DNA of 53,382 bases from Salinicola peritrichatus. Its GTDB lineage: Bacteria; Pseudomonadota; Gammaproteobacteria; Pseudomonadales; Halomonadaceae. This document shows positions 9,893 to 50,842 of this stretch, one piece after another. The DNA lies in assembly GCF_003206715.1 (NCBI RefSeq), contig NZ_PZJU01000018.1, positions 223 through 53,604 of the forward strand, written 5' to 3'. Position 1 is the stretch's first letter. The number at the start of each line of letters is the position of its first letter. The notes beneath the pieces are model-generated. The model saw only the letters and a list, made by a program, of their open reading frames with translations. It did no database searches and was not told the origin of the DNA. The position numbers and the translations under genes are program-made.

Positions 9893-9937
9893 GGCTTGTC
9901 TCCTGCGCTCAATGGGGCATTGTCCGAGGACGGAATC

Positions 9938-9943
9938 AGTATC
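9938..9943 (-). promoter_or_regulatory. Predicted -10 element of the adh-xfp promoter
   Basis: GATACT on the minus strand. Its position puts the predicted start of transcription near 9931 and the FNR site at 9966-9979 centred at about -41.5, the class II activator position for FNR. Confidence 0.55.
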
Positions 9944-9965
9944 CGGCGGGACGCACATCGTCGAT

Positions 9966-9979
9966 TTGACTTGGATCAA
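9966..9979 (-). promoter_or_regulatory. FNR/ANR binding site for adh-xfp
   Basis: TTGACTTGGATCAA matches the FNR consensus TTGAT-N4-ATCAA with one change. It is centred at about -41.5 from the inferred start of transcription of the alcohol dehydrogenase. Confidence 0.8.
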
Positions 9980-10029: not shown

Positions 10030-10043
10030 TTGATCCGGATCAA
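10030..10043 (+). promoter_or_regulatory. FNR/ANR binding site for the otsA fragment
   Basis: TTGATCCGGATCAA is a perfect match to the FNR consensus and a perfect palindrome. It lies about 95 bp upstream of the otsA start codon with a possible -10 (GATGGT, 10065-10070) at activator distance. It could also act on the divergent adh-xfp operon. Confidence 0.85.
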
Positions 10044-11147: not shown

Positions 11148-11161
11148 TTGATCCCGATCAA
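11148..11161 (+). promoter_or_regulatory. FNR/ANR binding site, orphan promoter
   Basis: TTGATCCCGATCAA is a perfect match to the FNR consensus. A possible -10 (CATAGC, about 11182-11187) lies at the right distance. No intact gene follows within 500 bp; only the 13-codon frame at 11273 and the 17-bp repeats lie downstream. Confidence 0.75.
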
Positions 11162-11593: not shown

Positions 11594-11607
11594 TTGATAT
11601 GGATCAA
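11594..11607 (+). promoter_or_regulatory. FNR/ANR binding site for the HAD/trehalose-phosphatase gene
   Basis: TTGATATGGATCAA is a perfect FNR consensus match, 100 bp upstream of the start codon. A weak -10 (AATGAT, 11629-11634) lies at activator distance. Two palindromes follow in the predicted leader: ATGGGTTAAACCCAT (11641-11655) and CGCCATATGGCG (11682-11693). Confidence 0.8.
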
Positions 11608-13323: not shown

Positions 13324-13337
13324 TTGACCCAGATCAA
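13324..13337 (+). promoter_or_regulatory. FNR/ANR binding site for hsp20
   Basis: TTGACCCAGATCAA, one change from the FNR consensus, centred 84 bp before the hsp20 start codon. No good -10 is evident at the class II distance. Confidence 0.7.
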
Positions 13338-13414: not shown

Positions 13415-13831
13415 ATGGAACTAACCACCTGGAATCCTTTCCGCGAAATGGAAGCGTTCTTCGATCGCTATAACCGCAACCGCCCGGCGTCTTCCCGCGA
13501 GGTTTGGGCACCGGCAGTGGATATCAGCGAAACCGACAAGGAGTACGTCATCACAGCGGAACTGGCTGGTATCGACGGCAAGGATGTCGAGATCACGGTA
13601 CAGAACAACGTGCTGACGCTCAGGGGTGAGCGGCATGACACGAAAGAGAGCAAGGACGCCAAGCACCACCTGGTCGAGACCAGCTATGGTCGCTTTTCGC
13701 GCAGTTTCTCGCTGCCATCCGATGTCATCGAGGAGCGGATCAGTGCCAATGGCAAGGACGGCATGTTGACCATCCATGTGCCGAAGGCGGAGATCGCCCC
13801 AGCCAAGAAGATCACCGTGAAGTCGGAATGA
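13415..13831 (+). CDS. Small heat shock protein, Hsp20 family
   Basis: 138 residues with a short N-terminal arm (MELTTWNPFREMEAFFDRYN), an alpha-crystallin domain from about residue 30 to 125 (VDISETDKEYVITAELAGID, VEITVQNNVLTLRGER, the ISANGKDGMLTIHVPKAE strand ending in the A-x-x-x-G-x-L-type motif), and a short tail. It acts as an ATP-independent holdase chaperone in the cytoplasm, forming oligomers. A good ribosome site (GGGAGAGAG) precedes the ATG. The FNR-type site upstream suggests induction at low oxygen rather than, or in addition to, heat. Confidence 0.93.
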   Translation: MELTTWNPFREMEAFFDRYNRNRPASSREVWAPAVDISETDKEYVITAELAGIDGKDVEITVQNNVLTLRGERHDTKESKDAKHHLVETSYGRFSRSFSLPSDVIEERISANGKDGMLTIHVPKAEIAPAKKITVKSE

Positions 13832-18821: not shown

Positions 18822-18860
18822 CGTGGCGCGTCCTCGTGGCGTCGTTGTCGGCAAGGGGAA

Positions 18861-20317: not shown

Positions 20318-22231
20318 TCAGCTTTGTTCCGTGCTTCTTGCCTTGTCCCCGGTGACCGTCGTCTTGGCTTCGGTCCCGGTTCCGCCCTGTGTGGATGTCT
20401 CGAGCAGACTCTCGATGGCTTGCCGGTATTGCCGATAGCTGTCGCTGTCGAACTCGGCATAGTTGAGGTTGCGGAACAGGTCGGTGAAGCGGGTGAAGGT
20501 CTCGCGGATGCGCTGTTTGCCATCGAACGTCAGCGGTGCATCGATCAGCCGCATCAGCAGTTCGATCGTAGCCTTCTGACGATCGAGAGAGGTGGAGGCA
20601 TCGACCTTGTCGAAGGCGTCCTGCTGCAGGTAGACCATGTCGATCAGCAATGCCTTCTGCTGGGTCAGGAAGTCGGCATCGCCGATCCCTTCCTCGCCGG
20701 TGACCTGCATCATGCGCTGGATCTCGTCGCCTTCATGGAGCAACGCCTTGAGCCGGTCGATGTCGGCCTGCCAGTGTTCGCCCATGGTCTTGCGGAACCA
20801 GGCGGAAAGCTGGTCGGCATAGCGCGACCAGGAGATCAGCGGGTCGACGGCGGGGTAGAAGCGCTTGTAGGCGCGATCGTAGCTCAGGCCGAGAAAGGTC
20901 TTGACGGTGCTCAGCGTGCCCTGGGTCACCGGCTCCTCGAAGTTGCCGCCGGCGGGGGAGACGGTACCGATCAGGGTCAGGCTGCCGCTCTCCTCATGGG
21001 CGGTACCGAGCACGCCGGCGCGTTCGTAGAGCTTGCGGATCGATGACTCGAGGTAGGCGGGGAACGCTTCCTCGCCGGGAATCTCCTCCAGCCGCCCGGA
21101 AGTCTCGCGCATCGCCTGGGCCCAGCGCGAGGTGGAATCGGCGATCAACAGCACGTCGTAGCCCATCTGCCGGTAGTATTCGCCGAGTGTCGTGCCGGTA
21201 TGGATCGAAGCCTCGCGCGCGGCGACCGGCATCGAGGAGGTATTGCAGACGATGATGGTGCGGTCCATCAGCGTGCCGCCGGTGCGAGGGTCCGCCAATT
21301 GCGGGTATTCGGTGATGGTCTCCACCACTTCCCCGGCGCGTTCGCCACAGGCCACGATGATCACGATATCGACGTCCGAATAACGCGAGATCAGGTTCTG
21401 CAGCACCGTCTTGCCGGCGCCGAAGGGACCGGGAATGCAGGCGGTGCCGCCCTTGGCGATGGGAAAGAAGGTGTCGATCAGGCGGATGGTGGTGGTCAGC
21501 GGGGTCTCGGGATAGCGCCTTTCGATCTGGCCTTGGTCGACCAGTTCCTGGCTCAGCGGATGGCGTACCGGCCAGTGCTGGGTCATGGTCACCGGATGCT
21601 CGCTGCCCGCCTCGTCGACCAGCCGAGCGACGACGGTATCGATGGTGAAGGTCCCGGCCTGGATCCAGGCCACCTTGAAGCTTCCGCGCAGCGCGAAGGG
21701 GACGAAGATCCGATGACTGAAGCGACCCTCCTGGACCGTGCCCAGCACGTCTCCGGAAACGACCTCGTCGCCGCTGCGCACGTGGGCTTCGAACGACCAC
21801 TCGCGCTTGTCGTCCAGCGCGCGCTCCTCGGTGCCGCGCTGGAGAAAGGTGCCACCGCGTTCCAGCAGGCGTGGCAGCGGGTTTTGCAGGCCATCGTAGA
21901 TCTGCCCCAGCAGGCCGGGGCCGAGTTCCACCGTCAACTGTTCGCCGCTCTGGATCACCGGGTCGCCGACCCCCAGGTTGCGGGTATCCTCGTAGACCTG
22001 GACGTCGGCCTGGCCGCCGCGAACCCGAAGTACCTCGGCCTTGAGCAGCGTGCGGGCCATGCCGGCATCCGGGGGTGGGCAGAGATAGACCACCTCGTTC
22101 TTGATCAGACTGCCCTGGGCAGTATCGTCGAGCATGATGGTAACGACGTCGTCGTTGATGGCGACGACCCTGGCGGTGGCGTCCGTCGGCGTCCCGGGGG
22201 CCGGCGTTGGGGAAGTGGCAGCCTGTGTCAT
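20318..22231 (-). CDS. V-type ATPase catalytic subunit A
   Basis: 637 residues; the catalytic subunit of the V1/A1 head. Walker A is GPFGAGKT (about 268-275), Walker B and the arginine-containing [20 protein letters not shown] segment follow, and the long non-homologous region (about 110-210) special to V-type A subunits is present. The start ATG overlaps the stop of the DUF2764 gene (ATGA). It is the last gene of the ATPase series, whereas in most bacterial V-ATPase operons A directly precedes B. Confidence 0.95.
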
Positions 22232-22950
22232 GATGCGTTGGTCTCGAAGTGAGTGACGAAATCCTGGGCGGGAATGGCATCCACCCACCGCAGGAAGCGC
22301 TCGCGGGCGACATCGGTATCGCGTGGGGCGGCACGCTCCACCAGCCACCAGCGGTAGAGATAGAGCATGACATCCTCCAGTCCATAGGGATGGTCGGCGC
22401 GCTGGCGGCTGAAATGAGCCCAGGCGATCTCGACCAGCGCGCGTTCCAGTACCTCGGCGCGTTCACTGGATACCTGAGCGGCAAGGGACTCCAGGTAGGC
22501 ATGGCGGTGGTCGAGTTGGAACAGCGGGTGCGACCAGTGACGCACCAACTGGCGGCCCACCGTTGGCAACTCGGCCAGGGGGCCGGGCGCGATGCCACCG
22601 TGCTGGCGCAAGCGCAGGGCAGCGGTGAGGCCGTTGAGGGTCAGCCACCACTGCAGCCAGGCATGGGGTCGGCTCAGGGGATCGAGTTTTCCCAGCAGTT
22701 GGCGAGCACTGCGCAGCAACGCCACGTCGTCGTCGAAATGCCCCAGCCGCTGCGGAACCAGCAGGCGCTCCAATGCGTCGATCCAGGCCCGATCCTGTGT
22801 CTCCAGCAGGCCGAGGCGCTGTTCGAGCTGGACCCGCGTGATCGGCAGGCGCTGGTACTCATAAGGCCGTGGCAGGTGCGGCAAAGAACTCAGCAGCATG
22901 GTGTAGCGATAGGCGGTGAACGACAAACCGACCTCCTTACGATTGCGCAT
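22228..22950 (-). CDS. DUF2764-type V-ATPase-associated protein
   Basis: 240 residues, soluble, rich in Leu, Arg and Trp. It occupies the place between subunits E and A that in spirochaete, chlamydial and Bacteroidetes V-ATPase operons is filled by a DUF2764 protein, thought to play the part of subunit C/d linking head and membrane sector. N-terminal features (YRYTMLLSSLPHL) fit this family, in which a Tyr/Leu-rich N-terminus is common. The assignment rests largely on gene order. Confidence 0.7.
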   Translation of the reverse strand: MRNRKEVGLSFTAYRYTMLLSSLPHLPRPYEYQRLPITRVQLEQRLGLLETQDRAWIDALERLLVPQRLGHFDDDVALLRSARQLLGKLDPLSRPHAWLQWWLTLNGLTAALRLRQHGGIAPGPLAELPTVGRQLVRHWSHPLFQLDHRHAYLESLAAQVSSERAEVLERALVEIAWAHFSRQRADHPYGLEDVMLYLYRWWLVERAAPRDTDVARERFLRWVDAIPAQDFVTHFETNAS

Positions 22951-22985
22951 CCATCAACCGGTACCGCGCTTTCCCGGCCCTTGAA

Positions 22986-23660
22986 TCAATTGACCACCCC
23001 TTCCAGCAGGGCACGAAAACGCGGCTGCAGGTGGCGCAACAACATCGCGGCGATCGCCTCGTCGCTCAGGTCGACCTCGACCTGCCCGTTTTCGAGCACG
23101 AAGCGCACCCCGGCGGCGACCGTCTTGTCGCCCTTGAGCACGATGCCGCGTTCCAGCATCTTGCCGGCGACTTCCGCCAGCAGCGCCGGCAGCGGGCCCT
23201 CGTGCAGTGCCTTGGAATTGGCGCGCAACTCCTCGACGCCAACCACCCGTTCCGGCAGCAGAGCCTTGCCCTTCAAGTCTGGCGGAACCGGTTCACGGCC
23301 GGCCGCCTCCAGAATCAGTCGCGACAGCATCTCCGGAGACTCCAGCGACTCCCGGATCAGTGTCTGCAACTCGCGGGCGAACTGCTTGGCGAAAGTATCC
23401 TTGGCGGTCAGACAGAGATCGCGATAGGCCAACTGCAGCGCCTGGTGGCCGGATTGCCTCAGGGCCTCGGCCTCGGCCTCGGCCGCCGCGCGCACCGCGG
23501 TCGCCTCCTCCTCGGCCTGCTTGACCAGCCACTCGGCGCGTTGCTGCGCCTCCTCGATCATCTGCGTGGCTTGCTGGCGTCCCGCTTCGACGCCCTGCTC
23601 GCGCAGGCTGTCGATCAGCGCCTGGATGCCTTGGCTATTCGACTCGGCGGAAGAACTCAT
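22986..23660 (-). CDS. V-type ATPase subunit E
   Basis: 224 residues. A long charged coiled coil (about 15-110: EEAQQRAEWLVKQAEEEATA and an Ala/Glu-rich stretch) followed by a compact C-terminal domain (GVRFVLENGQVEVDLSDEAI and AAMLLRHLQPRFRALL) is the standard architecture of the peripheral stalk subunit E. It lies 9 bp after subunit K and 35 bp before the DUF2764 gene. No separate peripheral-stalk partner gene (G/H) is visible. Confidence 0.88.
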   Translation of the reverse strand: MSSSAESNSQGIQALIDSLREQGVEAGRQQATQMIEEAQQRAEWLVKQAEEEATAVRAAAEAEAEALRQSGHQALQLAYRDLCLTAKDTFAKQFARELQTLIRESLESPEMLSRLILEAAGREPVPPDLKGKALLPERVVGVEELRANSKALHEGPLPALLAEVAGKMLERGIVLKGDKTVAAGVRFVLENGQVEVDLSDEAIAAMLLRHLQPRFRALLEGVVN

Positions 23661-23669
23661 GGGTTGGCC

Positions 23670-24116
23670 TCAATCCGGTAACGATCCGCTCAGCACGAGC
23701 GCGAAGACGAAGGTGAACACCGCGAACCCCTCGACGATGGCCGCCGGCGCCAGCGACATGCCGAAGACCTCCGGCTTGTGCTTGGAGGCATCGATGGCAC
23801 TGACCAGGGAACGTCCCTGGTAGATGCCGTTGAACAGAAACGCGATACCCGAAAGCAGGCCGATGGCGGCGATGCCGGCACCGTTGGCCACGGTAACCTC
23901 GCGGTTGAGCGTGAACATGATCACGATGCCGAGGATCGCCTGGGTCGAGGGCATCGCGGCAACGCCGATGAACTTGCCGTAGCCGCTCTCGACATCCAGC
24001 ATCGCCCCGGCGGCGGCCTGGCCGGCCAGGGTACAGCCGATCGAACTGGCGATCGTACCTAGGGCAACCGGGGCATAGATGCCCATCCATCCGAGCACCA
24101 GAATCACTTGATCCAC
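23670..24116 (-). CDS. V-type ATPase rotor subunit K, with sodium-site residues
   Basis: 148 residues forming four membrane helices, a duplicated hairpin. The ion-site residues described for the sodium-transporting NtpK ring of Enterococcus hirae (Thr64, Gln65, Gln110, Glu139) have counterparts in Thr58 and Gln59 (AMPSTQA), Gln100 (IYQGR) and Glu129 (AAIVEGF). This suggests that the ring carries Na+. The start is a GTG at 24116 with GGAGGAG 6 nt upstream, inside the end of subunit I (13-nt overlap). Confidence 0.9.
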   Translation of the reverse strand: MDQVILVLGWMGIYAPVALGTIASSIGCTLAGQAAAGAMLDVESGYGKFIGVAAMPSTQAILGIVIMFTLNREVTVANGAGIAAIGLLSGIAFLFNGIYQGRSLVSAIDASKHKPEVFGMSLAPAAIVEGFAVFTFVFALVLSGSLPD

Positions 24117-25909
24117 GTCGACTCCTCCTTGTTGGCGAATGCACGATAGGGGCGGCCCTCGCCATGAACGCCCCAGCGTAGGAATTCGATCAGATTGAGG
24201 CGCAGGCCATGGACGACGCCGCCCATCAGCGCCAGCGCGAAATTGAGCACGTGCCCGAGCAGCAGGATCATCAGGAAGGCCAGCGTGCCGCCGCCATCCA
24301 GGCCGTCGCGCGCTTGCAGCGCGAGCTGATTGAAGGTGACCGCCAGCGAGGCACTGGAGAGCCCTAGCGCGAACAGTCGCATGTAGCTCAAGGCGTTGCC
24401 GAAAGCCTGGGTCAGTTCGGCCAGCGAGGTCAGTCCACCGGTCAGGTGTTCGAGCCGGTGGCGCCAGGTATCGAAGGGCGCCTCGCTGGAGAAGCCCAGT
24501 ACGAGCAGGGCGCCGGCGATCAGGCCATAGGGCCAGGGTGTGTCGAACAACGGCGCGGGTATCGTCTGCTGGGTCGACCGCCACAGCAGGAAGCCACAGG
24601 CCAGCATCGCGACCCAGCCGAGATAGCCCAGTGCCCGCCAGCGGGGCCGGGCGTACCAGCCGGCGATGGCGTTGGCCAGGATCAGGTGGAGTACGCCGAC
24701 TGCGATCGACAGCGTCATCATGGTGCCGAAGTCGTCCATGTCGAGCCAATGCAACCGGTCGAGCCAAGAATCCGCTGGCGGGGTGACACCGAAGTAGCTG
24801 CCCACCACCACGCCGTAGATCAGCGAAACGCCGAACATCGACAGTCCCAGGTTGCCCAGGCGGCGACCGGTACGACTGTGCTTCCAGCGCGGCCGGGCGA
24901 GCAGGCAGAGCAGCCCGCCCGCGAGCGCATAGCCGGCATCGGCGAGGATCACGGCGAAGAACAGCGAGAACGAGAAGAACAGCATCATCGACGGGTCCCA
25001 ACTACGATAGCCGGGCAGTTGGAAGAATTTCAGCGCTTCCTCTCCGCCCGCCGCCCACTCCGGGTTGTCGAGCAGGATCGGCGGTTCCTCGCCGGGTTCG
25101 GGCGGGCGATGAACCAGAGCAGCGCGAGACACTTCGCACAGCGACTCCAGCGCCGGAATCCGGTCGGCGGGCACCCAGGCTTCCAGCACGAACAGGTCAT
25201 CGTCGTCATGGCTGGCGCGTTCCACCTGGCCCAGTGCATCGGCGTTGCTGGCCTGGGCGACCTGACCGGCCAGGTAGCGGATCCATTGGGTCAACAGGTA
25301 GCGTTCGGCATCGAGTTGCTCCAGTTCGGCCTGCAGCGAGGTCTCCTCGGCGTTCATTGCGCGTAGCGACAGGCCTCCGGTATGGGAGCGCTCGAACGGA
25401 ACCTGCTCCGGGGCGGGCTCGGTAGGGGAGATCACCACCAGATAGAGTTGGCGGTGGTCCCGGTTGACCACCACCCAGGGCAGCGCGATATCGGTGACGG
25501 CGTGGCGCTGTCCCAGCGGCACCAGATAGAACCAGAATCGCTGGCCGCCGATGGCATCGAACTCGGGGAATTCGAACTCGCCCCAGGGCAGCAGTTCCTG
25601 GCGGTGGCGATGGAGCAGGGTCAGGCGATCCTGAATTTGCTCGCGCTGGCTGCGGTTATCATGAATCTCTCGCAGCAGGGGCCTGAGTTCGGGGCGGCTA
25701 TCCGGCCAGTGCAGGCGTCGTCGCTGAGGGCAGGCCAGCAGATAGTCCAGGGCCTCGAGCAACTGCACGTGGTCGCGATGGGGCTCACCGCTGCTGAGGT
25801 TGCGAGTATCGACGTGGGCGACGCCGGCGGCCTGGAGCTGGCGCAGCACGTCGCGCTTGTACCGGCGGCTGCCGATCAGGGTGGCTCGGCGCATGCTGAC
25901 GATGCTCAT
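24104..25909 (-). CDS. V-type ATPase membrane subunit I (a)
   Basis: 601 residues. The N-terminal half (about 1-300) is cytoplasmic and coiled (MSIVSMRRATLIGSRRYKRD is a typical opening); the C-terminal half has about seven membrane helices and the stretch LTQAFGNALSYMRLFALGLS, whose Arg is the stator residue needed for ion transfer. It forms the half-channels against the K ring. The start overlaps the stop of subunit D (ATGA) and the stop overlaps subunit K, so the genes are tightly coupled. Confidence 0.92.
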   Translation of the reverse strand: MSIVSMRRATLIGSRRYKRDVLRQLQAAGVAHVDTRNLSSGEPHRDHVQLLEALDYLLACPQRRRLHWPDSRPELRPLLREIHDNRSQREQIQDRLTLLHRHRQELLPWGEFEFPEFDAIGGQRFWFYLVPLGQRHAVTDIALPWVVVNRDHRQLYLVVISPTEPAPEQVPFERSHTGGLSLRAMNAEETSLQAELEQLDAERYLLTQWIRYLAGQVAQASNADALGQVERASHDDDDLFVLEAWVPADRIPALESLCEVSRAALVHRPPEPGEEPPILLDNPEWAAGGEEALKFFQLPGYRSWDPSMMLFFSFSLFFAVILADAGYALAGGLLCLLARPRWKHSRTGRRLGNLGLSMFGVSLIYGVVVGSYFGVTPPADSWLDRLHWLDMDDFGTMMTLSIAVGVLHLILANAIAGWYARPRWRALGYLGWVAMLACGFLLWRSTQQTIPAPLFDTPWPYGLIAGALLVLGFSSEAPFDTWRHRLEHLTGGLTSLAELTQAFGNALSYMRLFALGLSSASLAVTFNQLALQARDGLDGGGTLAFLMILLLGHVLNFALALMGGVVHGLRLNLIEFLRWGVHGEGRPYRAFANKEESTWIK

Positions 25910-26517
25910 CGCTTGCCCTCCGCGGCGTGCTTCTGCTTGGCCAGCTTGGAACGCACCACCGCAGCGCGTTCCTGGTCGGCGAGATAGAGATCGATGCGCG
26001 CGATCTGGTGGCTGACCGTCGGTATCATCACCTTGGAAAAGAGATTGACGCGCTGGGTCACCGTACGGCTGGCCTCGTCCAGCAGCGCGAGCCGCCGTTC
26101 CATCACCTGGGTTTCGATGCGTAGTCGCAGCATCGTCTCGCTGCGTTCGACCAGGCGCTCCATCCAGTGCGCCTGGCTGAGCAAGCCATAGGCGTGGCGC
26201 TCGATGTCGATACCCTCCAGGCGTGGCAGGGTGACGCCGACCAGGTTCTCCTCCACCACCCGCACGCCGGAAACCTGCAGCGGCGCTTGCGGCAGCGGCA
26301 TGTCGTCGGCCAGCATCGACAGTTCCTCGCCGACCTCCGCCTGCAATGCCTCCCTCTGTTCGCGCAACTCGTGCATGCGTGACTGCGCCTGCTTCTGCAG
26401 CATCAGCAGCATGCGTTGCTTCATTTCCAGCGCCGGCAGATAGCGCTGGTACATTTCCCGCTGTCGTTTAAGACGACTGAGCGAGCTCTTGTTCAGCGTC
26501 GGCGTTGTCGTCTGCAT
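25906..26517 (-). CDS. V-type ATPase central stalk subunit D
   Basis: 203 residues, almost entirely helical. The opening TPTLNKSSLSRLKRQREM and LPALEMKQRMLLMLQKQAQ match the family, as does the C-terminal RVNLFSKVMIPTVSHQIARI followed by a Lys/Ala-rich tail. It forms the rotor shaft. The start at 26517 lies 50 nt inside the end of subunit B; no shorter start preserves the conserved N-terminus, so the overlap is probably real. Confidence 0.88.
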   Translation of the reverse strand: MQTTTPTLNKSSLSRLKRQREMYQRYLPALEMKQRMLLMLQKQAQSRMHELREQREALQAEVGEELSMLADDMPLPQAPLQVSGVRVVEENLVGVTLPRLEGIDIERHAYGLLSQAHWMERLVERSETMLRLRIETQVMERRLALLDEASRTVTQRVNLFSKVMIPTVSHQIARIDLYLADQERAAVVRSKLAKQKHAAEGKR

Positions 26518-27850
26518 GGTCGGGCCAGTAGGTGTCCTTGAGGGATTGCTTGATGACGATCTCGTCGCGCTCGAAACACTCGGCCAGCAGGGCCCAGCAG
26601 GCATCCAGCGCGGATTCCAGCGGCATCTGCACGTCGAGCCGCATGAAGCGCTCACGGAAGGCGGTGGCGAAGCGCAGCAGCTTGCGGTCGAACGGCGACA
26701 GATCGAAGGCCATGGACTGTTTCTGCTCGGCTTCGACGCCTTCGGCATAGTAGCGGATCATCGTGTTCATGATCTGGCTGTGATCCTCGCGGGTCTGCTT
26801 GCCGACCACATTCTGTTTGAGACGCGACAGCGAGCCGAACGGGTCGATCACGCCATCGTGGAGATAGAACTGGCCCTCGGTGATATAGCCGGTGTTGTCC
26901 GGCACCGGATGGGTGACGTCGTTGCCGGGCATGGTCGTCACGCTGAGAATGGTGACCGAACCGGCGCCCTTGTAATCGCAGGCCTTCTCGTAGCGGCGCG
27001 CGAGCTGCGAGTAGAGGTCGCCCATGTAGCCACGGTTGGAGGGAATGTGCTCCATGGCGATACCGAGCTCCTTGAGCGCGTCGGCGAACGCGGTCATGTC
27101 CGACAGCAGCACCAGCACCCGCTTGCCTTCCTCCACCGCCAGGTGTTCCGCCACCGCCAGCGCGAGATCGGGAATCAGCGTGCGCTCGACCACAGGGTCC
27201 GAGGCCAGGTTGGCGAACATCACGCTGCGTGACAGCACCCCGGCATCCTCGAATGCCTTGCGGAAGGTATGGAAGTCGTCGTAGATCAGGCCGATGCCGC
27301 CGAACACCACCACGTCGGCGTCGGCCTGGATGCCGATACGCGCCATCAGCGCGTTGTGGGGTTCGCCGGCCACCGAGAAGATCGGAATCTTCTGGCTTTC
27401 CACCAGGCAATTGAAGACATCGATCATCGGGATGTCGGTGCGGATCATGCGCGAGGCGAGAATGCGCGCCATCGGGTTGACGGTGGGGCCGGCGATCTCC
27501 ACCCGTGGGTCCTCGTCGAGCCGGGGGCCGAAATCCACCGGCTGGCCGGCACCGTTGAACACCCGGCCGAAAATGTTGGTGGAGTAGATCGCCTGCATCA
27601 ACTGACCGAGAAAACGCACCTGGGCCCGATTGGACAGCCCCTGGGTACCGGCGAACACCTGCAGCGAGACCCGGTCGCGGTCGATGCGCGCCACCTGGGC
27701 CAGCGAAAACGCGCGGCCATCCTGTTCGATCATCGCCAGTTCGCGGTTGCGGGGCAGAATGCCCAGGCGCTGGGCGGATTGGGCGTCGACCTCGACGATA
27801 TCGCCGACGATCGACAGGATGCCGCGGAAGGAAGTCGATTCGCGTGTCAT
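26468..27850 (-). CDS. V-type ATPase regulatory subunit B
   Basis: 460 residues; the non-catalytic head subunit. It shows DVFNCLVESQKIPIFSVAGE, where a P-loop is replaced by SVAGEPHNA, as usual for B subunits, and SVTILSVTTMPGNDVTHPVP near the interface with A. An AGGAG lies upstream of the ATG. It is the first ATPase gene here, 73 bp after the phosphate acetyltransferase gene, with no promoter or terminator evident between them, so the ATPase is likely co-transcribed with pta and the PFOR genes. Confidence 0.95.
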   Translation of the reverse strand: MTRESTSFRGILSIVGDIVEVDAQSAQRLGILPRNRELAMIEQDGRAFSLAQVARIDRDRVSLQVFAGTQGLSNRAQVRFLGQLMQAIYSTNIFGRVFNGAGQPVDFGPRLDEDPRVEIAGPTVNPMARILASRMIRTDIPMIDVFNCLVESQKIPIFSVAGEPHNALMARIGIQADADVVVFGGIGLIYDDFHTFRKAFEDAGVLSRSVMFANLASDPVVERTLIPDLALAVAEHLAVEEGKRVLVLLSDMTAFADALKELGIAMEHIPSNRGYMGDLYSQLARRYEKACDYKGAGSVTILSVTTMPGNDVTHPVPDNTGYITEGQFYLHDGVIDPFGSLSRLKQNVVGKQTREDHSQIMNTMIRYYAEGVEAEQKQSMAFDLSPFDRKLLRFATAFRERFMRLDVQMPLESALDACWALLAECFERDEIVIKQSLKDTYWPDHADDNADAEQELAQSS

Positions 27851-27923
27851 GAGAGGATACTGCTCCTGTTCCCGAATCTTGCGACGGTGAGATTCATGAT
27901 AGGCCTTTCCGCCGCATGGCGGT

Positions 27924-28862
27924 TCAACCGGCCAACGATGCCAGCGCGCGCTCGAGCCGGGCCGAGGCGAGCAGGGTGCCGATGCCGCAACTGGCGATGC
28001 GCGCGCGAATCGAATCGGAACGGCTGGTCAGCACGATCGGTACCCGTGCGCCGAGCACGATGCCGGCGGCCTCGGCGCCGGCCAGATAGATCAACTGCTT
28101 GGCCAGGATATTGCCGGCCTCCAGATCCGGTACCAGCAGGACATCGGGGTCGCCCGCCACCTCGGAGTCGATGCCCTTGGTCTGCGCGGCTTCCAGGCTG
28201 ATCGCATTGTCGAACGCCAGCGGCCCGTCGAGCAAAGCGCCCTCGATCTGGTGGCGGTGCGACATCGTCACCAGCGCGGCGGCTTCCAGGGTCGAGGGCA
28301 GCTTGGCGGTGATGGTCTCCACCGCGGACAGGATCGCGACCTTGGGCCGCTCCACGCGCAATACCTTGAGCAGGTCGATGGCGTTGCGGCAGATATCGGC
28401 CTTGTCGTCCAGGGTGGGAAAGATATTGACCGCCGCATCGGTGACGAACAGCGGCTTGTGGTAGCTGGGTACGCTCATCGCGAACACGTGGCTCAGGCGG
28501 CGCTCGGTGCGCAAGCCGCTGTCGTGGGCGGCCACCGCGTGCAGCAGTTCGTCGCTGTGCAGACTGCCCTTCATCAGCATCTCCGCGCGTCCCTCGCGCA
28601 CCAGTGCCACGCCGCGCTCGGCGGCGGCGTGACTGTGCGCCACGTCTTCGACCGGCAAGTCGCCGAGCGAGACACCGAGCGCCTCGGCGGTGGCTTCGAT
28701 CTTGTCCCGCGGCCCTACCAGCAGCGGTGCGATCAGGCCGAGCCTAGCGGCCTCCAGCGCGCCTTCCAGGGCATGGGCCTCGCACGGATGGACGACGGCC
28801 GTCGGCACCGGTTGCAAGCCGTTGCAGCGTTCGAGCAGGGCCTGATAGTGGTCACGGGACAC
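27924..28862 (-). CDS. pta: Phosphate acetyl/butyryltransferase family protein
   Basis: 312 residues, the size of the catalytic domain alone (short Pta or Ptb). Family segments visible include LMKGSLHSDELLHAVAAHDS, RRLSHVFAMSVPSYHKPLFV, TDAAVNIFPTLDDKADICRN and the C-terminal AKQLIYLAGAEAAGIVLGAR VPIVLTSRSDS region. It interconverts acetyl-CoA and acetyl phosphate in the cytoplasm, linking PFOR to acetate kinase. The start is GTG at 28862 with AAGGAG 9 nt upstream, overlapping the end of the DHOD-like gene by 11 nt. Butyryl-CoA or propionyl-CoA could be alternative substrates. Confidence 0.88.
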   Translation of the reverse strand: MSRDHYQALLERCNGLQPVPTAVVHPCEAHALEGALEAARLGLIAPLLVGPRDKIEATAEALGVSLGDLPVEDVAHSHAAAERGVALVREGRAEMLMKGSLHSDELLHAVAAHDSGLRTERRLSHVFAMSVPSYHKPLFVTDAAVNIFPTLDDKADICRNAIDLLKVLRVERPKVAILSAVETITAKLPSTLEAAALVTMSHRHQIEGALLDGPLAFDNAISLEAAQTKGIDSEVAGDPDVLLVPDLEAGNILAKQLIYLAGAEAAGIVLGARVPIVLTSRSDSIRARIASCGIGTLLASARLERALASLAG

Positions 28863-29925
28863 GATGATGGGCTCCTTTGCCGAACAAGGCTCGATAAGCC
28901 TGGTGACTGGAATAATGCGCTATCAGGTGCAGATAATTCGCGCGTTCATAGACGCCTGCGACATTATCCCGCAGGCGCTCCCGGCTCATCAGGCCGCGAA
29001 TCTCCGCCAGCGACGCCACGCCTCGCGCCTCGCACCACGCGCGCAGCCCGGCCAGCAGGGTGGCAACGTGCCCCGGCCCGTGACGCAGCAACGCCGAAGT
29101 GGTCATCACCACGTCGGCACCCGCCAGCAGATACTTGACCACTTGCTCCGAGGTTTCGACGCCAGTGGAAGCCGCCAGCGAACAGCGCAGGCGGCCATGG
29201 AGCACCGCGACCCACAGCAACGCCAGACGCATCTCCTCAGGTTGACTCAGCGCCAACTCGCTGGAGAGCGTCATGCGCGACAGATCGATGTCGGGCTGCA
29301 GGAAGCGATTGAACACCACCAGGCCATCGGCGCCACCATCGACGAAGCGGCTGGCCATGTCGGCGATCGCGCTGAAATAGGGCGGCATCTTCACCACGAC
29401 CGGGATTCGAACCTTGGCGCGAACCGCACTCAGCACCTGAAGGTAGCGCTCCTCGATCTCCCTGCCGCCCTGTTCGAGTTCCACCGGCACATAATAGATG
29501 TTGAGTTCGAGCGCATCGGCGCCGGCGGCTTCGATGGCGGCCGCGTGATCGACCCAGCCGCCCGGCGTCGCCCCATTGAGACTGGCGATCACCGGCACGT
29601 CCAGCGCCGCCCTGGCCTGGCGGATCAGCTCGAGGTAGGCATCCGGACCGACCCCGTAGGGGCCTTCCAGTACCTGAGGCGGGAAGTAGCCGCTGGCCTC
29701 GGGGTTATGGGCCTCGGTGTTCCGTTCGAGATCGTCCAGCCAGCGCGCCCGGGCCGAAAGCTGCTCCTCGAACAGCGAGGGCAGCACCACCGCGCCGATA
29801 CCGTTGTCCTCCAGTTGCCGCAGATGGCCCAGATCGGCATTGTCCGGCGACGGCGAGGCAACCAGCGGATTGCGCAGGGTCAGGCCGAGATAGCCGGTGG
29901 TGAGATCCAGGGTCGTGGTATCCAT
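28852..29925 (-). CDS. Dihydroorotate dehydrogenase-like flavoprotein
   Basis: 357 residues forming an FMN-binding TIM barrel of the class 1 dihydroorotate dehydrogenase superfamily (LGLTLRNPLVASPSPD at the N-terminus, DALELNIYYVP, PVVVKMPPYFS, a DGLVVFNRF segment, and ASTGVETSEQVVKYLLAGAD at the phosphate site). Such DHOD-like proteins are often found beside pyruvate:ferredoxin oxidoreductase, where their substrate is not known; a role in pyrimidine synthesis is unlikely given the context. GGGAGAGC precedes the ATG at 29925. Confidence 0.82.
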   Translation of the reverse strand: MDTTTLDLTTGYLGLTLRNPLVASPSPDNADLGHLRQLEDNGIGAVVLPSLFEEQLSARARWLDDLERNTEAHNPEASGYFPPQVLEGPYGVGPDAYLELIRQARAALDVPVIASLNGATPGGWVDHAAAIEAAGADALELNIYYVPVELEQGGREIEERYLQVLSAVRAKVRIPVVVKMPPYFSAIADMASRFVDGGADGLVVFNRFLQPDIDLSRMTLSSELALSQPEEMRLALLWVAVLHGRLRCSLAASTGVETSEQVVKYLLAGADVVMTTSALLRHGPGHVATLLAGLRAWCEARGVASLAEIRGLMSRERLRDNVAGVYERANYLHLIAHYSSHQAYRALFGKGAHHRVP

Positions 29926-29985
29926 GTCAGCTCTCCCGATACGAGAGTGGGGTAAAGGCAGAGAATGGGGCAAAGGCATATCGGT

Positions 29986-33599
<3,614 letters not shown>

Positions 33600-33603
<4 letters not shown>

Positions 33604-35264
33604 CGTGCGACCTCCAGTGCGTGCCCATCCGTTTCGGGAACCGCCGTCTCGGCAACCATGTCGATGGCGTGGCAGGGGCACTGCTCGTAGCAGGCCTCGC
33701 AGCCGGTGCAGAGTGTCAGGTCCACCTGGTATCCCTGGCCGGGGCCGAGCTTGAGAATGGCGTCCTCGGGGCAGGCGGCGTAGCAGTTGTCGCATTCGTA
33801 GCAGTTGCCGCAGGAGAGGCATCGACTGGCTTCGTGGCGAGCGCTGGGCTCGTCGATGCCCTGCACGACCTCGTCGAAATCGAGGCGCTCGGCCAACGAT
33901 AGCTCCCGCGGATGGGCCTGGGCGGCATCGTCGAACAGCGGCAGATGCAGGGCCTCGAAATCGACCACGCGGCGGCTGGGCGGGGACTGCCAGCGTCCAC
34001 CCGCCAACCAGGCGTCGATATGCCGCGCGGCCCGCTTGCCGAGCCCGGTGGCCTGGGTCACGCTGCGTTGGGTCGGGACCACGTCGCCGCCGGCGAAGAT
34101 ACCGGGATGGCCGGTCTGCATGTCCTCGCCGACCAGTACGGTACCGTCCGCGGCGATCTCGATGTCCGGCACCCGGCGCAGGAAGTCGACATCGGTGATC
34201 TGCCCCAGGGCGAGCACCAGGGTGTCGGCCTGCAGCGTCTCGTATTCACCGGTCGGTTGCGGCTGGCCGTCGTCGTCCAGGGCCATCTTCTCCACGGTGA
34301 CGTTGTGTCCGTCCATGTCCTTGACGCTCGACAGCCACTTCACCTCGATGCCCTCGCTCAGCGCGTCCTGCAGTTCCGAGGGTTGCGCGCCCATCCGGGT
34401 CTGATCGCGATGGTAGATCACCATCGCTTCGTCGATGCCGAGCCGACGCGCGGTTCGCGCGGCGTCCATCGCGGTATTGCCGCCGCCATACACCGCCACT
34501 CGTCGGCCCAGTCGCGGGCGTTCGCCAGTGGCCGTGGCGTGCAGCAGGGCGACCGCGTCCAGCACCTGGGCGGCGTCGCGCGCGGGGATATCGATGTGGC
34601 GCCCGACCTGGGCGCCGATGGCAACGTAGACCGCATCGAAGTTGCCCGAGCGTTGCACGTCGAGCAGATCCTCGATCTGGTGTTCCAGCACGAATTTCAC
34701 GCCCAGCGCTTCGACGCGTGCGATCTCCCGGTCGAGCACGTCGCGTGGCAATCGGTAGGCGGGAATGCCGTAGCGCATCATCCCTCCCGCCTGGTTCCCG
34801 GCGTCGTGAATCTCGACCTCGTGTCCACGAATCGCCAGGTGCCAGGCGGCGGAAAGCCCGCTGGGACCGGCGCCCACCACCAGCACGCGTTTGCCGCTGG
34901 GGGAGGCCTTGGGTACTACCCAGCCTTCGCGCTGGGCCAGATCGCCCAGATAGCGTTCGACCGAATGGATGCTGACCGGGCTATCGAGCTGGCCGCGATT
35001 GCACCCGCCCTCGCACGGGTGATAGCAGACCCGTCCGTGGATCGCTGGAAACGGATTGTCGGCGACCAGGATCTCCCAGGCTTCCCGCCAGCGCCCGGCC
35101 TGGGCCTTGTCCAGCCAGGCCTGGATGTTCTCGCCAGCCGGGCAGGCGTGGTTGCAGGGAGGCTTCAGATCGACGTACTCGGGATGCTGGGTCCGCCTGC
35201 GACCCACCGCATGACGCTGGGTGAAGTCGACCCTGGGGCTCATGTCGTCGTGCAAGGAACTCAT
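33600..35264 (-). CDS. GltD-like FAD/NAD(P) oxidoreductase with C-terminal ferredoxin domain
   Basis: 554 residues. N-terminal Cys-rich [Fe-S] domain as in glutamate synthase small chains (PPCNHACPAGENIQAWLDKA, CYHPCEGGCNRGQLD), an FAD Rossmann motif (VLVVGAGPSGLSAAW, about residue 127), an NAD(P) Rossmann motif (VAVYGGGNTAMDAAR), and C-terminal Cys clusters (CLSCGNCYECDNCYAACP near 478 and CTGCEACYEQCP near 518). It probably moves electrons between reduced ferredoxin from PFOR and NAD(P). No glutamate synthase large subunit is nearby. Confidence 0.88.
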
Positions 35265-35404
35265 CTCGGAGGACTCCTCTGGCTATAACGGTCGGGGACT
35301 GCGGCGGTGCCGTGGTCCCGGAATGCGACGGGCTGCTTCGGCCCTCGCTGTCGTGGTCGGTCGGGTGGGCAGGGGACGACTTGCCGGGCCGGCCCCCATG
35401 ATGC

Positions 35405-36715
35405 TCACGGATCGACGGTATGAACCCGAGGCGGCCTGCCGGTGCCGGATTCACGGATAAAGAACGTCAGCACGATGGCGAGTACCAGTCCCGCCACGTA
35501 GATCATGTCCACTTCCCGGAACAAGGCCACGGTCAGGTCGCCGGTACCGGAGAGATGGCCGATGAAATTACCGATGATGGGGGTCGCCACCGCGCTTGAG
35601 GCGAACACGATGAAATTGATCGTGCCCGTGGCGGTGCCCTTGACCCTGTCCGGATTCAACTCCTTGATCATGGTGTAGGGAATCATCGCGGCCCCGGAGG
35701 CGACGCCGAACAGCAGTCCCATGACGTAGGGCGGCGTGGAGCCGGATGGCAGGTAGACGATCGTCGCGCCGAACACCAGCATCAACACGATGCCGCCGAT
35801 CAGCACCGGCTTGCGGCGGCCGAGTGCGTCGGCGATATAACCCAGCAGCGGGGCACCGATCACCCAGCCCAGGGGGATCATGCTGATGCGGGTCACGGCC
35901 TGTTCGTAGCTGACGCCCTGGGCCTGCTCCAGAAAAGGAATCCCCCAGATCATGTCGGCGATGTTGGTCGGCATGAACATCAGGCCGGAGACGATGCCAC
36001 AGAGATAGGAGTGCGGATTGCGCAGCACCACCTTGTAGGGTTCCAGCAGGCTCTCGCGCTCGCTGCCATCGGCTGCCTCGATGGGCACCGGACGCCGGTT
36101 TCCCGGTGTCACGGCCAGCATGGCCATGCTCATCAGCACCAGCACGCCACCGGCGAAGAACCAGAACTGCTGCCAGCCGATGACCGAATGTATCAACGGG
36201 CCCACCACCGATTGCCCAATGGAACCTCCCAGCATGCCGAAGCACTGGGTCACTCCCACCGCCGTGGCCAGCCACTGGCGTGGAAAACCGCGTGTCGCCA
36301 GGTAGACCGCGCCGGTGAAGGCGACGCCAGAGCCGGCGCCCTGGAGTAGACGCCCTAGGCTGGCGGCGAACACCGAGCCGAGGCCGAACAGTATCGCTCC
36401 CAAGGCCAATAGCAGGATGCCCGCGGGCACGACCCGGCGTGGACCGATGCGATCGAGCAGCAACCCCGACACCAGGGCAGAGAGGGCATAGGTATAGAAA
36501 TAGAGTCCGATGATGGAGGTAATGGTGCCGCTGGTGGCATTCAATGCCTGCTCCAGCTCCGGCAGCATGATTCCCGGTGCCGAGCGCATCCCGTATTGGG
36601 TGAAATAGAACAGGACGCAGACCAGCCAGGCGGCAACGAAGACAGGATTGAGGCGTTGATTCTCATCGCCGGACAGCGCGGCGGAAGGATTATTTACGGA
36701 ATAATGACGTGTCAT
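35405..36715 (-). CDS. Major facilitator superfamily transporter
   Basis: 436 residues with twelve predicted membrane helices and a central cytoplasmic loop near residue 210. The MFS signature between helices 2 and 3 reads LLLDRIGPRRVV and its repeat in the second half reads YIADALGRRKPVL. The substrate is unknown; an organic acid fits the metabolic setting, but no residue proves it. It is the first gene of the long minus-strand train ending with ATPase subunit A (140 bp before the GltD-like gene) and is divergent from ackA. Confidence 0.85.
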   Translation of the reverse strand: MTRHYSVNNPSAALSGDENQRLNPVFVAAWLVCVLFYFTQYGMRSAPGIMLPELEQALNATSGTITSIIGLYFYTYALSALVSGLLLDRIGPRRVVPAGILLLALGAILFGLGSVFAASLGRLLQGAGSGVAFTGAVYLATRGFPRQWLATAVGVTQCFGMLGGSIGQSVVGPLIHSVIGWQQFWFFAGGVLVLMSMAMLAVTPGNRRPVPIEAADGSERESLLEPYKVVLRNPHSYLCGIVSGLMFMPTNIADMIWGIPFLEQAQGVSYEQAVTRISMIPLGWVIGAPLLGYIADALGRRKPVLIGGIVLMLVFGATIVYLPSGSTPPYVMGLLFGVASGAAMIPYTMIKELNPDRVKGTATGTINFIVFASSAVATPIIGNFIGHLSGTGDLTVALFREVDMIYVAGLVLAIVLTFFIRESGTGRPPRVHTVDP

Positions 36716-36811
36716 TATCTGGTTCCCAATGTGGCTGATTTCGATCCCACTCAGAAAATTCCAAACCCACTTTGGCAGAAGTTAGCACGCATAAGATGTG
36801 ATGAAAGCGAG

Positions 36812-36998: not shown

Positions 36999-37320
36999 TG
37001 AATTGTTTGTATGTGTGGTTTTTATGTGGCGTCCAATCGTTGGTAATGATTTGCGTTTATATGATTTATTCTTAGCTGTCAGTTAGAAAAACAATGAGTT
37101 GTATTCAATAAAGCATTGTTGGTGCAATTCACGAAATATCGCGATATCTTGTGAAGCCTCGGGCGCGGGGAGGACGCGGATAACGGAATCGTTCGCGTTT
37201 TGAACCTCTCCCGTGAATCTGCGAATGGACGCTGAGAGACTTCGCGCGACTGTCCTGTTCGTGTCCTCGATTTCTTACCCTCGATTGAACGATCGAAACA
37301 CCGTGGAGAATGGCCTTTCG

Positions 37321-38529
37321 ATGAAAACACAGCACCCCGGTATCGTGATCGTCAATGCGGGCTCCTCGAGTATCAAACTCTCCTTTTTCGAACTCGATGC
37401 CCAGGGGCCGGTGATCTATGCGCATGGACACATGGAGGGTATCGGCGCACACCGGCCCCACATGGCGTTGGTCGATGCCACCGGCGAGACGCTGGAGTCG
37501 CATACCTTCGCCGCCGGCGACGTCGCCGACCATACCGCGGCGTACCGGTTGTTGCGCGAAGCCATCGAGCGCGACTTGAGTGGATTCCAGCCGTTCGCCA
37601 TCGGCCATCGGGTCGTGCACGGCGGTTCCCACTTCGACGCTTCCGTGGTGATCGACGCGGCGGTCAAGCGCGAAATCGAGGCCCTCGGCGTACTGGCGCC
37701 GTTGCATCAGCCACCGGCGCTGGCGGCCATCGAGATGATCGAGTCCATCGCTCCCGATATTCTGCAGATCGCCGGCTTCGACACCGCCTTCCACTTTCAC
37801 CGCGACACCTTGCATCAGTTGACCGGGTTGCCATACGACCATTTCGAGCAAGGGTTGCGACGCTATGGCTTCCATGGCCTCTCCTACGAGTACATTGCCC
37901 AGTGCCTGGAGGCCGATGCGCCGCATCTGTTCCACGGCCGCACCGTGGTCGCGCACCTGGGGGGCGGGGCGAGCCTGTGCGCGATGCAGGCCGGGCGCAG
38001 CATCGACACCACCATGAGCCTGACCCCGCTGGATGGTTTACCGATGGGCACGCGTTGCGGATCGCTCGACCCCGGTGCCTTGCTTTATCTGCTGGGGCAG
38101 GGCATGAGCGTCGACCGCTTGCGTCACCTGCTCTACTATGATTCCGGGCTCAAGGGACTCTCGGGGATATCGAGCGACATGCGTGAACTGCTCGCCAGCC
38201 GCGAACCGAGAGCCGCCATGGCCGTGGAATACTTCGTCGAGCGTCTGGCCCAGGAGTGCGCGCGCATGGCCCAGGTGATGCAGGGCTTCGATGGCCTGGT
38301 GTTCACTGGCGGCATCGGCGAGCACGCGGCGCCGATCCGCGAGCGGCTATGCGCCCGATTGCAGCCGCTTTTCGGGGTGGATTGTGACCGGGAAGCCAAT
38401 CGTGGCTCCCCGGTCGGAGTGATCTCCAGCGCCGAAAGCCGCGTCGAGGTCCGCGTGATGCCCACCGATGAAGAAGGCATGCTGGCGCGCCACGTATGGC
38501 GATTGTGGCGTCAGCGCAACGGCGAGTAG
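37321..38529 (+). CDS. ackA: Acetate kinase
   Basis: 402 residues. ASKHA-fold motifs: VIVNAGSSSIKLSFF at the N-terminus, GHRVVHGG (about 95), the FDTAFH segment (about 155), RYGFHGLSYEY, the adenosine motif HLGGGASLCAM, and FTGGIGEHAAPIRERLC near the C-terminus. It makes ATP and acetate from acetyl phosphate supplied by phosphoketolase or by PFOR plus Pta. The ATG at 37321 begins the conserved N-terminus and has GGAG upstream; earlier in-frame codons have no homology. Confidence 0.95.
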   Translation: MKTQHPGIVIVNAGSSSIKLSFFELDAQGPVIYAHGHMEGIGAHRPHMALVDATGETLESHTFAAGDVADHTAAYRLLREAIERDLSGFQPFAIGHRVVHGGSHFDASVVIDAAVKREIEALGVLAPLHQPPALAAIEMIESIAPDILQIAGFDTAFHFHRDTLHQLTGLPYDHFEQGLRRYGFHGLSYEYIAQCLEADAPHLFHGRTVVAHLGGGASLCAMQAGRSIDTTMSLTPLDGLPMGTRCGSLDPGALLYLLGQGMSVDRLRHLLYYDSGLKGLSGISSDMRELLASREPRAAMAVEYFVERLAQECARMAQVMQGFDGLVFTGGIGEHAAPIRERLCARLQPLFGVDCDREANRGSPVGVISSAESRVEVRVMPTDEEGMLARHVWRLWRQRNGE

Positions 38530-47540: not shown

Positions 47541-48473
47541 TCAGCGATAGGCGATGCCCTGGATGGCGGTGGAGACCCGCGTGCCGGCATCGCTTCCCGA
47601 GATGATGGCCCGGATTTCCCCAAGCGATCCGATGACGGCGGGTTTGCCCGTGTGGCGGGCGAAACGGCAGGCGGCCTCGACCTTGGGCCCCATGGAACCC
47701 GCGGCGAAGCCCAACTTGGACAGGTGGTCCGGATGCGCCGTGGCGATGGCTCTCTGGCCGGGAGCGTGCCAATCGACATAGGCGGCATCGACATCGGTGG
47801 CGATCACCAGGAGATCGGCGTCGAGCTGCTCGGCCAACAGCGCCGAGCAGAGATCCTTGTCGATCACCGCTTCGACGCCTTGCAGACGGCGGTCGCCGGC
47901 ATACACGGTGGGAATGCCGCCACCGCCGGCGCAGATCACGATAGTGCCGCGTTCCAACAGCCACTTCACCGGGCGAATCTCGAAGATGCGCTTGGGGTCC
48001 GGACTGGGTACCACGCGGCGGAACTTGTCGCCATCCGGCTGGATGCTCCAGCCTTTCTCGCGGGCGAGACGCTCCGCCTCCTCGCTATCGTAGACGGGGC
48101 CGATGGGTTTGCTCGGCGCCCGGAAAGCGGGATCGTCGGCGTCCACTTCCACTTGGGTCAGCAGGGTGGCGAGGGGCTGTTCCGCCGGCAGCAGGTTGCC
48201 CAGCTCCTGTTCGATCATGTAGCCGATCATGCCCTCCGTCTGGGCGCCGAGGACATCGAGAGGATAGGGAGAAACCTCCGTATAGGCGGCACCCTGCAAG
48301 GCCAGCAACCCGACCTGCGGGCCATTGCCGTGGGCGATGACCAGTTCGTTGCCGGGTATGGCGAGCGCCAACTGCTCGCAGGCCTTTCTCACGTTGGCGC
48401 GTTGCGCTTCGGCGGTCAGGGGCTCGCCACGGCGCAGCAGGGCGTTGCCGCCCAGGGCGACTACGATACGCAT
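47541..48473 (-). CDS. arcC: Carbamate kinase
   Basis: 310 residues, amino acid kinase fold: [20 protein letters not shown] at the start, [13 protein letters not shown], the [15 protein letters not shown] loop, [20 protein letters not shown] and the [11 protein letters not shown] segment. It transfers phosphate from carbamoyl phosphate to ADP, giving ATP, CO2 and ammonia. Last gene of arcDABC, 21 bp after arcB. Confidence 0.96.
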
Positions 48474-50776: not shown

Positions 50777-50842
50777 CACACACTCCTTGCTAGCGTTTGC
50801 CCGGTGGCTCCCAGGGAGACCGGGCGAGGACGAGCGATCGCC

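What the first reader, a model, noticed from the sequence alone, without database searches (positions are those of the whole stretch)
20318..36715. PFOR, Pta and a V-type ATPase in one gene train
MFS, GltD-like, nifJ, DHOD-like, pta and seven V-ATPase genes run in one direction over 16 kb, with start/stop overlaps at nifJ, pta, D, I, K and A. Only two gaps exceed 70 bp. This joins acetyl-CoA/acetyl phosphate production directly to an ATP-driven ion pump. The idea that fermentative ATP drives ion export when respiration stops, in a presumed halophile, is an inference that I do not know to be described.
Basis: partly seen in the sequence, partly recalled or inferred. Interest (0 to 1): 0.8.

Follow-up and report, generated by a model that had tools for sequence, protein, structure and literature searches.

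The report
Fermentation genes wired to ion pump
A salt-loving bacterium keeps genes for making ATP without oxygen, an ATP-driven membrane ion pump and a likely oxygen sensor together in one stretch of DNA, and some relatives have a different oxygen-free ATP pathway beside the same pump, which suggests that the pump keeps the membrane charged when breathing stops.

Summary
The gene train is real: MFS, GltD-like, nifJ, DHOD-like, pta, then V-ATPase B-D-I-K-E-X-A, minus strand, with the stated overlaps. X (DUF2764) models as the V-ATPase C/d subunit. The exact nifJ-pta-V-ATPase adjacency is not conserved: nifJ is in 2 of 151 family genomes and beside the ATPase only here, and a Salinicola sister is colinear but lacks the 10.9-kb ackA-to-pta block. 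Yet the same pump cassette recurs beside other ATP-yielding genes: arcDABC 35 bp before B in a close relative, arcC overlapping B in alphaproteobacteria, acetate kinase elsewhere. Of 108 distinct loci (window included) 23 carry such genes, 66 do not, 19 are too short. Best reading: an FNR-controlled, probably Na+-exporting V-ATPase that spends fermentation ATP to energise the membrane in anoxia. Co-transcription, FNR control, direction and ion are inferred. New variant of a known kind.

The parts
35405..36715 (-). MFS transporter, substrate unknown
   Evidence: Pfam MFS_1 4.6e-52
33600..35264 (-). GltD-like flavoprotein with Fe-S domains, likely electron partner of PFOR (inference)
   Evidence: PRK12771 over cut-off
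29986..33603 (-). nifJ, pyruvate:ferredoxin (flavodoxin) oxidoreductase
   Evidence: TIGR02176 over cut-off; start ATG 33603
28852..29925 (-). dihydroorotate dehydrogenase-like protein
   Evidence: PRK07565 over cut-off
27924..28862 (-). pta, phosphate acetyltransferase
   Evidence: PRK11890 over cut-off; only full-length match in the genome
26468..27850 (-). V-ATPase subunit B
   Evidence: PRK02118 over cut-off
25906..26517 (-). V-ATPase subunit D
   Evidence: PF01813
24104..25909 (-). V-ATPase subunit I
   Evidence: V-ATPase I models, below cut-off
23670..24116 (-). V-ATPase rotor subunit K, double hairpin
   Evidence: matches 2bl2; T64, Q65, Q110, E139 kept, M at 61, L at 68
22986..23660 (-). 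V-ATPase subunit E
   Evidence: PRK01558 7.4e-25, below cut-off
22228..22926 (-). X, DUF2764, probable V-ATPase C/d subunit
20318..22231 (-). V-ATPase subunit A
   Evidence: PRK04192 over cut-off
37213..38529 (+). ackA, acetate/propionate kinase
   Evidence: TIGR00016 321.1 against 293.4; only PF00871 match in the genome
36985..36998 (.). perfect FNR/Anr box TTGATTTAAATCAA between ackA and the train
5057..5830 (-). fnr/anr-type regulator
   Evidence: NF008365 253.9 against 228; only one over cut-off in the genome
6374..8815 (-). xfp, phosphoketolase
   Evidence: XFP domains
8819..9979 (-). zinc alcohol dehydrogenase upstream of xfp
9966..9979 (.). FNR-type box, one mismatch
10030..10043 (.). 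perfect FNR box before adh-xfp
11148..11161 (.). perfect FNR box
11594..11607 (.). perfect FNR box before the HAD/trehalose-phosphatase gene
13324..13337 (.). FNR-type box, one mismatch, before Hsp20
13415..13831 (+). Hsp20-type small heat-shock protein
   Evidence: below model cut-offs
47541..48473 (-). arcC, carbamate kinase
   Evidence: TIGR00746 over cut-off
48495..49505 (-). arcB, ornithine carbamoyltransferase
49520..50779 (-). arcA, arginine deiminase
   Evidence: only match in the genome at E 1e-20
50843..52258 (-). arcD-like amino-acid permease

Best explanation
An anoxia-response energy locus. PFOR, with the GltD-like protein as likely electron partner, turns pyruvate into acetyl-CoA; Pta makes acetyl phosphate (phosphoketolase makes it from sugar phosphates); AckA turns it into ATP; the arc operon gives a second ATP source from arginine. 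The V-ATPase, probably read through from the same transcript as nifJ-pta, hydrolyses that ATP and exports ions, most likely Na+, so that the cell keeps a membrane gradient when respiration stops. FNR, encoded in the same window, would switch it on at low oxygen. The cassette B-D-I-K-E-X-A is a movable consumer that some lineages have placed beside different ATP-yielding genes. Shown here: gene content, order and spacing, single-copy status, perfect FNR boxes and an FNR gene, and a recurrent but minority linkage. Inferred: co-transcription, FNR control, hydrolysis direction, Na+ as the ion.
For: (1) Train and junctions. (2) The genome's only ack, only full-length pta match, only nifJ and V-type B over cut-off and only arginine deiminase at the thresholds used lie on one 53.6-kb contig of a 4.62-Mb genome. 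(3) Four perfect TTGATNNNNATCAA sites in the window; 300 shuffles give 0.037 on average and at most 1. The genome's only FNR over cut-off is in the window. (4) Module swapping: G074 has arcDABC then B-D-I-K-E-X-A in one direction, arcC-B gap 35 bp, and no ack or pta match; G090 has arcDABC divergent from B, an FNR-type box 98 bp before B and the end of an fnr-like gene after A; arcC overlaps B by 4-11 bp in L037, L073, L119. (5) 23 of 108 distinct B loci, window included, carry arc or acetyl-phosphate genes; bioA, bioB and bioF, used as controls, occur in 1 of 108 each. (6) The linked state needs 8 changes on a quick tree of B. (7) FNR-type box within 400 bp before B in 6 of 105 loci, 0.24 in shuffles. 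(8) In H. elongata V-ATPase and ANR transcripts both fall as salt rises (PMC9006882 passages).
Against: 66 of 108 loci show no such gene and 19 have too little upstream DNA; in the methanotroph, Photobacterium and Neptunomonas loci whose neighbours were identified these are ordinary genes. 8 of the 23 have only arcB, which makes no ATP by itself. In five arc loci the arcC-B gap is 376-1767 bp, not tight. Three of the six FNR-boxed promoters are close relatives of one genus. Arginine deiminase does not significantly co-occur with the V-ATPase (5 of 23 against 10 of 128, p 0.055). ackA is a separate transcription unit. The nifJ-pta-B junction is a single case. The Na+ site is incomplete (Tyr68 is Leu). 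No expression, transport or mutant data for this organism.
Confidence: 0.6

Rival explanations
1. The V-ATPase runs the other way, as a Na+-driven ATP synthase. PFOR reduces ferredoxin, Rnf (or Na+-NQR) pumps Na+, and the V-type enzyme makes ATP from the Na+ gradient.
For: PFOR makes reduced ferredoxin and an rnfB gene over cut-off is in the genome. The H. elongata paper considers direct ATP production by its V-ATPase (PMC9006882 passage). Part of the Na+ site is kept.
Against: In arc-linked clusters the neighbour supplies ATP, not ferredoxin or Na+ pumping. The train's neighbour is ackA, which already makes ATP.
Confidence: 0.17
2. The genes merely lie together: an island gathered by transfer and insertion, with the fermentation block landing next to the V-ATPase by chance and no functional coupling.
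For: S. avicenniae has the same neighbourhood without the 10.9-kb block. nifJ-pta-B is a single case. V-ATPase clusters occur on plasmids. Most loci lack the linkage.
Against: Different ATP-yielding genes recur beside the cassette, with overlapping genes in three loci. Control genes do not recur. FNR boxes are enriched before B.
Confidence: 0.15
3. The pump serves salt or pH homeostasis, exporting Na+ as in Enterococcus hirae, independent of anoxia.
For: Halophile relatives; partial Na+ site in K; E. hirae precedent (PMC9006882 passage).
Against: In H. elongata the V-ATPase genes fall as salt rises. FNR boxes and ATP-yielding neighbours.
Confidence: 0.08

Closest known systems
Enterococcus hirae Na+ V-ATPase
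   Same: In a fermenting bacterium ATP drives a V-type Na+ pump; double-hairpin K with T64, Q65, Q110, E139 (PMC9006882 passage)
   Different: Here a proteobacterial type with DUF2764 and no F subunit found, next to FNR boxes and ATP-yielding genes; residue 68 is Leu, 61 is Met
V-ATPase of Halomonas elongata (PMC9006882, passages read)
   Same: Same K residues at 61, 64, 65, 68, 110, 139 as in its Table 3; falls together with ANR as salt rises
   Different: The passages seen do not treat gene context or fermentation, and an ATP-synthase role is considered
Anr-controlled ackA-pta and arc fermentation of Pseudomonas (PMC12491237, PMC6588701, passages read)
   Same: Same ATP routes and the same TTGATNNNNATCAA box
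   Different: No V-ATPase in those passages
E-X-A-B-D-I-K type bacterial V-ATPases (order of Chlamydia, Spirochaetes, Bacteroidetes; recalled)
   Same: Same subunit set with DUF2764
   Different: Order here is B-D-I-K-E-X-A, like a circular permutation; in two distant relatives A lies before B (L140, L141)

Membership tests
V-type ATPase, NF002555/DUF2764 branch | Catalytic A and non-catalytic B subunits | tested here: met
   A 749.7 bits (cut-off 470), B 670.5 (431)
V-type ATPase, NF002555/DUF2764 branch | D, E, I and K subunits in the same cluster | tested here: met
   E and I below NCBIfam cut-offs
V-type ATPase, NF002555/DUF2764 branch | C/d-type socket subunit | tested here: met
Canonical V/A-ATPase with F subunit | F subunit (PF01990) | tested here: not met
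   no match in the own genome at E up to 10
Na+-translocating V-ATPase | Na+ ligand set in K (L61 backbone, T64, Q65, Q110, E139; Y68 support) | tested here: inconclusive
   T, Q, Q, E kept; M at 61, L at 68 (criteria from PMC2359735 passages)
PFOR-Pta-AckA acetate fermentation | All three enzymes present | tested here: met
   TIGR02176 and PRK11890 and TIGR00016 over cut-off
FNR/Anr regulon | Consensus box before the genes and an FNR with four Cys | tested here: met
   4 perfect boxes, 0.037 expected; FNR over cut-off, Cys18, 21, 27, 120 (the role of the four Cys is recalled)
FNR/Anr regulon | FNR-dependent transcription at low oxygen | not testable with these tools
   needs RNA data

The most novel reading that the evidence does not exclude
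A clade of proteobacterial V-ATPases works as an emergency membrane charger: a mobile seven-gene pump, often FNR-controlled, that evolution has repeatedly wired beside whichever substrate-level-phosphorylation route a lineage has (arginine deiminase, PFOR-Pta-Ack, phosphoketolase-Ack), letting respiring bacteria keep an ion gradient in anoxia by burning fermentation ATP; DUF2764 is its shortened C/d socket subunit.
Probability: 0.45. Interest if true: 0.75.

Novelty: new variant of a known kind. Interest (0 to 1): 0.62.

Why it matters
V-ATPases are patchy in these proteobacteria (23 of 151 genomes of the family; 10 of 369 of the class) and their role there is unsettled: the H. elongata paper, whose species also has an F-type enzyme, left ion and direction open (passages). 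A recurrent link to ATP-yielding genes and FNR boxes gives a specific, testable answer: the pump serves anoxic survival rather than salt stress. It also points to an identity (subunit C/d) for a Pfam family still called DUF2764.

Tried and rejected
Conserved nifJ-pta-V-ATPase adjacency as such: rejected, 1 of 108 loci and 1 of 151 genomes. A simple salt-stress pump: disfavoured. Presence/absence association in 151 genomes: arginine deiminase 5 of 23 V-ATPase genomes against 10 of 128 others, p 0.055; acetate kinase 21 of 23 against 81 of 128, p 0.005 (hand counts, test); the genomes are related, so both are weak. tRNA and Rfam scans gave nothing. Foldseek gave no match at E 0.001 for X; only the VIA second look placed it. 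A profile of X against PDB sequences gave two hits, E 0.15 and 0.98, both taken as chance. My first translation of K was out of frame, so one search is void; it was redone. The neighbour clustering used crude ORF calls with many antisense ORFs and served only to choose proteins.

Rows dropped or limited. Five loci with a B identical to another's were dropped (L080, L132, L137, L138, L144), 113 to 108. 19 loci with under 4 kb upstream and no label stay in the 108 as 'short'. L132 (G114), with ack-pta about 10 kb before B, was one of the dropped rows and is not among the 23. The genome-contig scan kept the best 80 of 452 relatives, so the sample leans to close kin. The two whole-genome surveys were draws of 151 (family) and 369 (class) genomes. 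The tree is the 'quick' kind, with long branches and many weak forks.

Literature. Searches (listings, several cut at 10-20 rows) and passages of PMC9006882, PMC5231179, PMC2359735, PMC6588701 and PMC12491237. Those aimed at the linkage listed no title or abstract start about V-ATPase joined to arc or ack/pta genes; the listed papers were not opened beyond the five named, and most subscription papers are not held.
Full report
Observation. The minus-strand train is as described. Starts chosen from the sequence: nifJ ATG 33603, DHOD ATG 29925, D ATG 26517, K GTG 24116, X TTG 22926, A ATG 22231. Six junctions overlap; the only gaps over 70 bp are MFS-GltD (140 bp) and pta-B (73 bp).

What surrounds it. 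Divergent from the train across 497 bp is ackA, the only acetate kinase match in the genome. The window also holds phosphoketolase with an alcohol dehydrogenase, an Hsp20-type protein, and arcDABC. The genome's only nifJ and V-type B over cut-off, its only full-length pta match and its only arginine deiminase at E 1e-20 are on this contig too. If three units (ack, nifJ-pta, arc) were placed at random, all lying within 25 kb of the V-ATPase would have odds near 1e-6, a rough figure. Other ATP-synthase alpha/beta-type genes lie elsewhere in the genome and were not typed. Four perfect TTGATNNNNATCAA sites occur in the window; 300 shuffles give 0.037 on average, at most 1. They are at 10030 (51 bp before the longest adh ORF), 11148, 11594 (71 bp before a HAD/trehalose-phosphatase gene) and 36985 (270 bp before MFS, 228 bp before the ackA ORF). 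For the last, 0.24% of 5000 shuffles of the intergenic region hold one. Looser sites lie 91 bp before Hsp20 and 453 bp before arcD. The motif is the Anr consensus used in PMC6588701 (passage). The only FNR over the model cut-off in the genome lies in the window, 5057-5830. It aligns over residues 13-243 with a solved FNR and has Cys 18, 21, 27 and 120. A broken second fnr copy lies near 10.3 kb.

Is the linkage conserved? As written, no. In 151 genomes of the family the V-ATPase marker is over cut-off in 23 and nifJ in 2 (G000 and G016); only the window's genome has both. In 369 genomes drawn from the class the marker is over cut-off in 10, the window's included. Salinicola avicenniae (L040) is colinear with the window from the biotin genes through glgP, V-ATPase, AdhP and HlyD-RbbA, except that window 27836-38691, holding ackA, MFS, GltD, nifJ, DHOD and pta, has no counterpart. 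Whether this is gain or loss is not known. G016 has MFS-GltD-nifJ-DHOD-pta (69-85% identical) with a perfect FNR box upstream, no V-ATPase marker over cut-off, and its ack on another contig. So the window joins two cassettes that exist apart.

A wider pattern. In G074 the cassette (B 89% identical) is preceded in the same direction by arcD-arcA-arcB-arcC with a 35-bp gap, in a genome without ack or pta matches. In G090 arcDABC is divergent from B, an FNR-type box lies 98 bp before B, and the end of an fnr-like gene (53 residues at the edge of the fetched stretch) follows A. arcC overlaps B by 4-11 bp in Tateyamaria (L037, L119) and Aestuariivita (L073); the gap is 78 bp in a Kiloniellales bacterium (L106), and 376-1767 bp in L051, L054, L061, L065 and L086. 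Tateyamaria and Qingshengfaniella carry such clusters on plasmids, the latter with arcDABC divergent. Kistimonas and Parendozoicomonas have arcA, arcB and arcC upstream; Endozoicomonas-type loci have only arcB. A Lambdaproteobacterium has ack and xfp, and a BD1-7 bacterium ack, downstream of A. G114 has ack-pta followed by PHB and alcohol dehydrogenase genes about 10 kb upstream, and an FNR-type box 158 bp before B.

Counts. Eleven have two or more of arcABC, 8 only arcB, 3 (window included) acetyl-phosphate genes, 1 arcC plus acetyl-phosphate genes, 66 none, and 19 too little upstream DNA. Control genes bioA, bioB and bioF occur in 1 of 108 each, all in L040; the window's own trehalose-phosphatase and Hsp20 genes in 0. 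On a quick tree of B the linked state needs 8 changes and the arc group 6, so it arose or was lost several times; counts cannot tell gain from loss. An FNR-type box (TTGAYNNNNRTCAA) lies within 400 bp before B in 6 of 105 loci, where shuffles give 0.24 (at most 2 in 300) and the same loci elsewhere 0.38. Three of the six (L041, L042, L139) are close relatives.

How it works, in my reading. At low oxygen FNR switches on ackA and the train. PFOR, Pta and AckA, and the arc route, make ATP by substrate-level phosphorylation. The V-ATPase spends it to export ions and keep the gradient that transport and motility need. In H. elongata three V-ATPase genes are up at low salt and the rest fall steadily as salt rises, and ANR falls sharply at high salt (passages), which fits oxygen and energy control better than Na+ extrusion. 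The strongest rival is the reverse direction, an Rnf-charged Na+ ATP synthase; rnfB is present. Against it, arc-linked clusters bring ATP but no ferredoxin. I give 0.6 to the main reading, 0.17 to ATP synthase, 0.15 to mere neighbourhood and 0.08 to salt homeostasis.

Novelty. Anr control of ackA-pta and arc fermentation is known in Pseudomonas (PMC12491237 and PMC6588701 passages), and ATP-driven V-type Na+ pumping in E. hirae (PMC9006882 passage). What none of the listings showed is the repeated physical joining of a V-ATPase to these genes.

Noticed in passing
window 22228-22926: DUF2764, a Pfam family of unknown function, models as the V-ATPase C/d subunit, shorter (232 residues) than the solved ones (320-350).
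   Followed up: yes
window 10275-10688: A second, broken fnr copy with an internal stop, 70.5% identical to the intact fnr over 146 residues.
   Followed up: partly
window 11665-13269: HAD plus trehalose-phosphatase fusion gene with G+C 0.48 (third positions 0.49) in a 0.62 window, foreign-looking, with a perfect FNR box 71 bp upstream.
   Followed up: partly
window 13902-18854: HlyD, RbbA-like double ABC ATPase and ABC permease genes; the same trio lies downstream of the V-ATPase on the Qingshengfaniella plasmid (L039), and HlyD-RbbA in S. avicenniae (L040).
   Followed up: partly
   Followed up: no
G110 contig C12 96191-102663: A second V-ATPase B match in two pieces about 5 kb apart, with ack and pta about 10 kb away.
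   Followed up: no
L066, L075, L078, L079, L085, L088, L092, L110: Only an ornithine carbamoyltransferase gene 170-600 bp before V-ATPase B, without arcA or arcC nearby; unexplained.
   Followed up: partly
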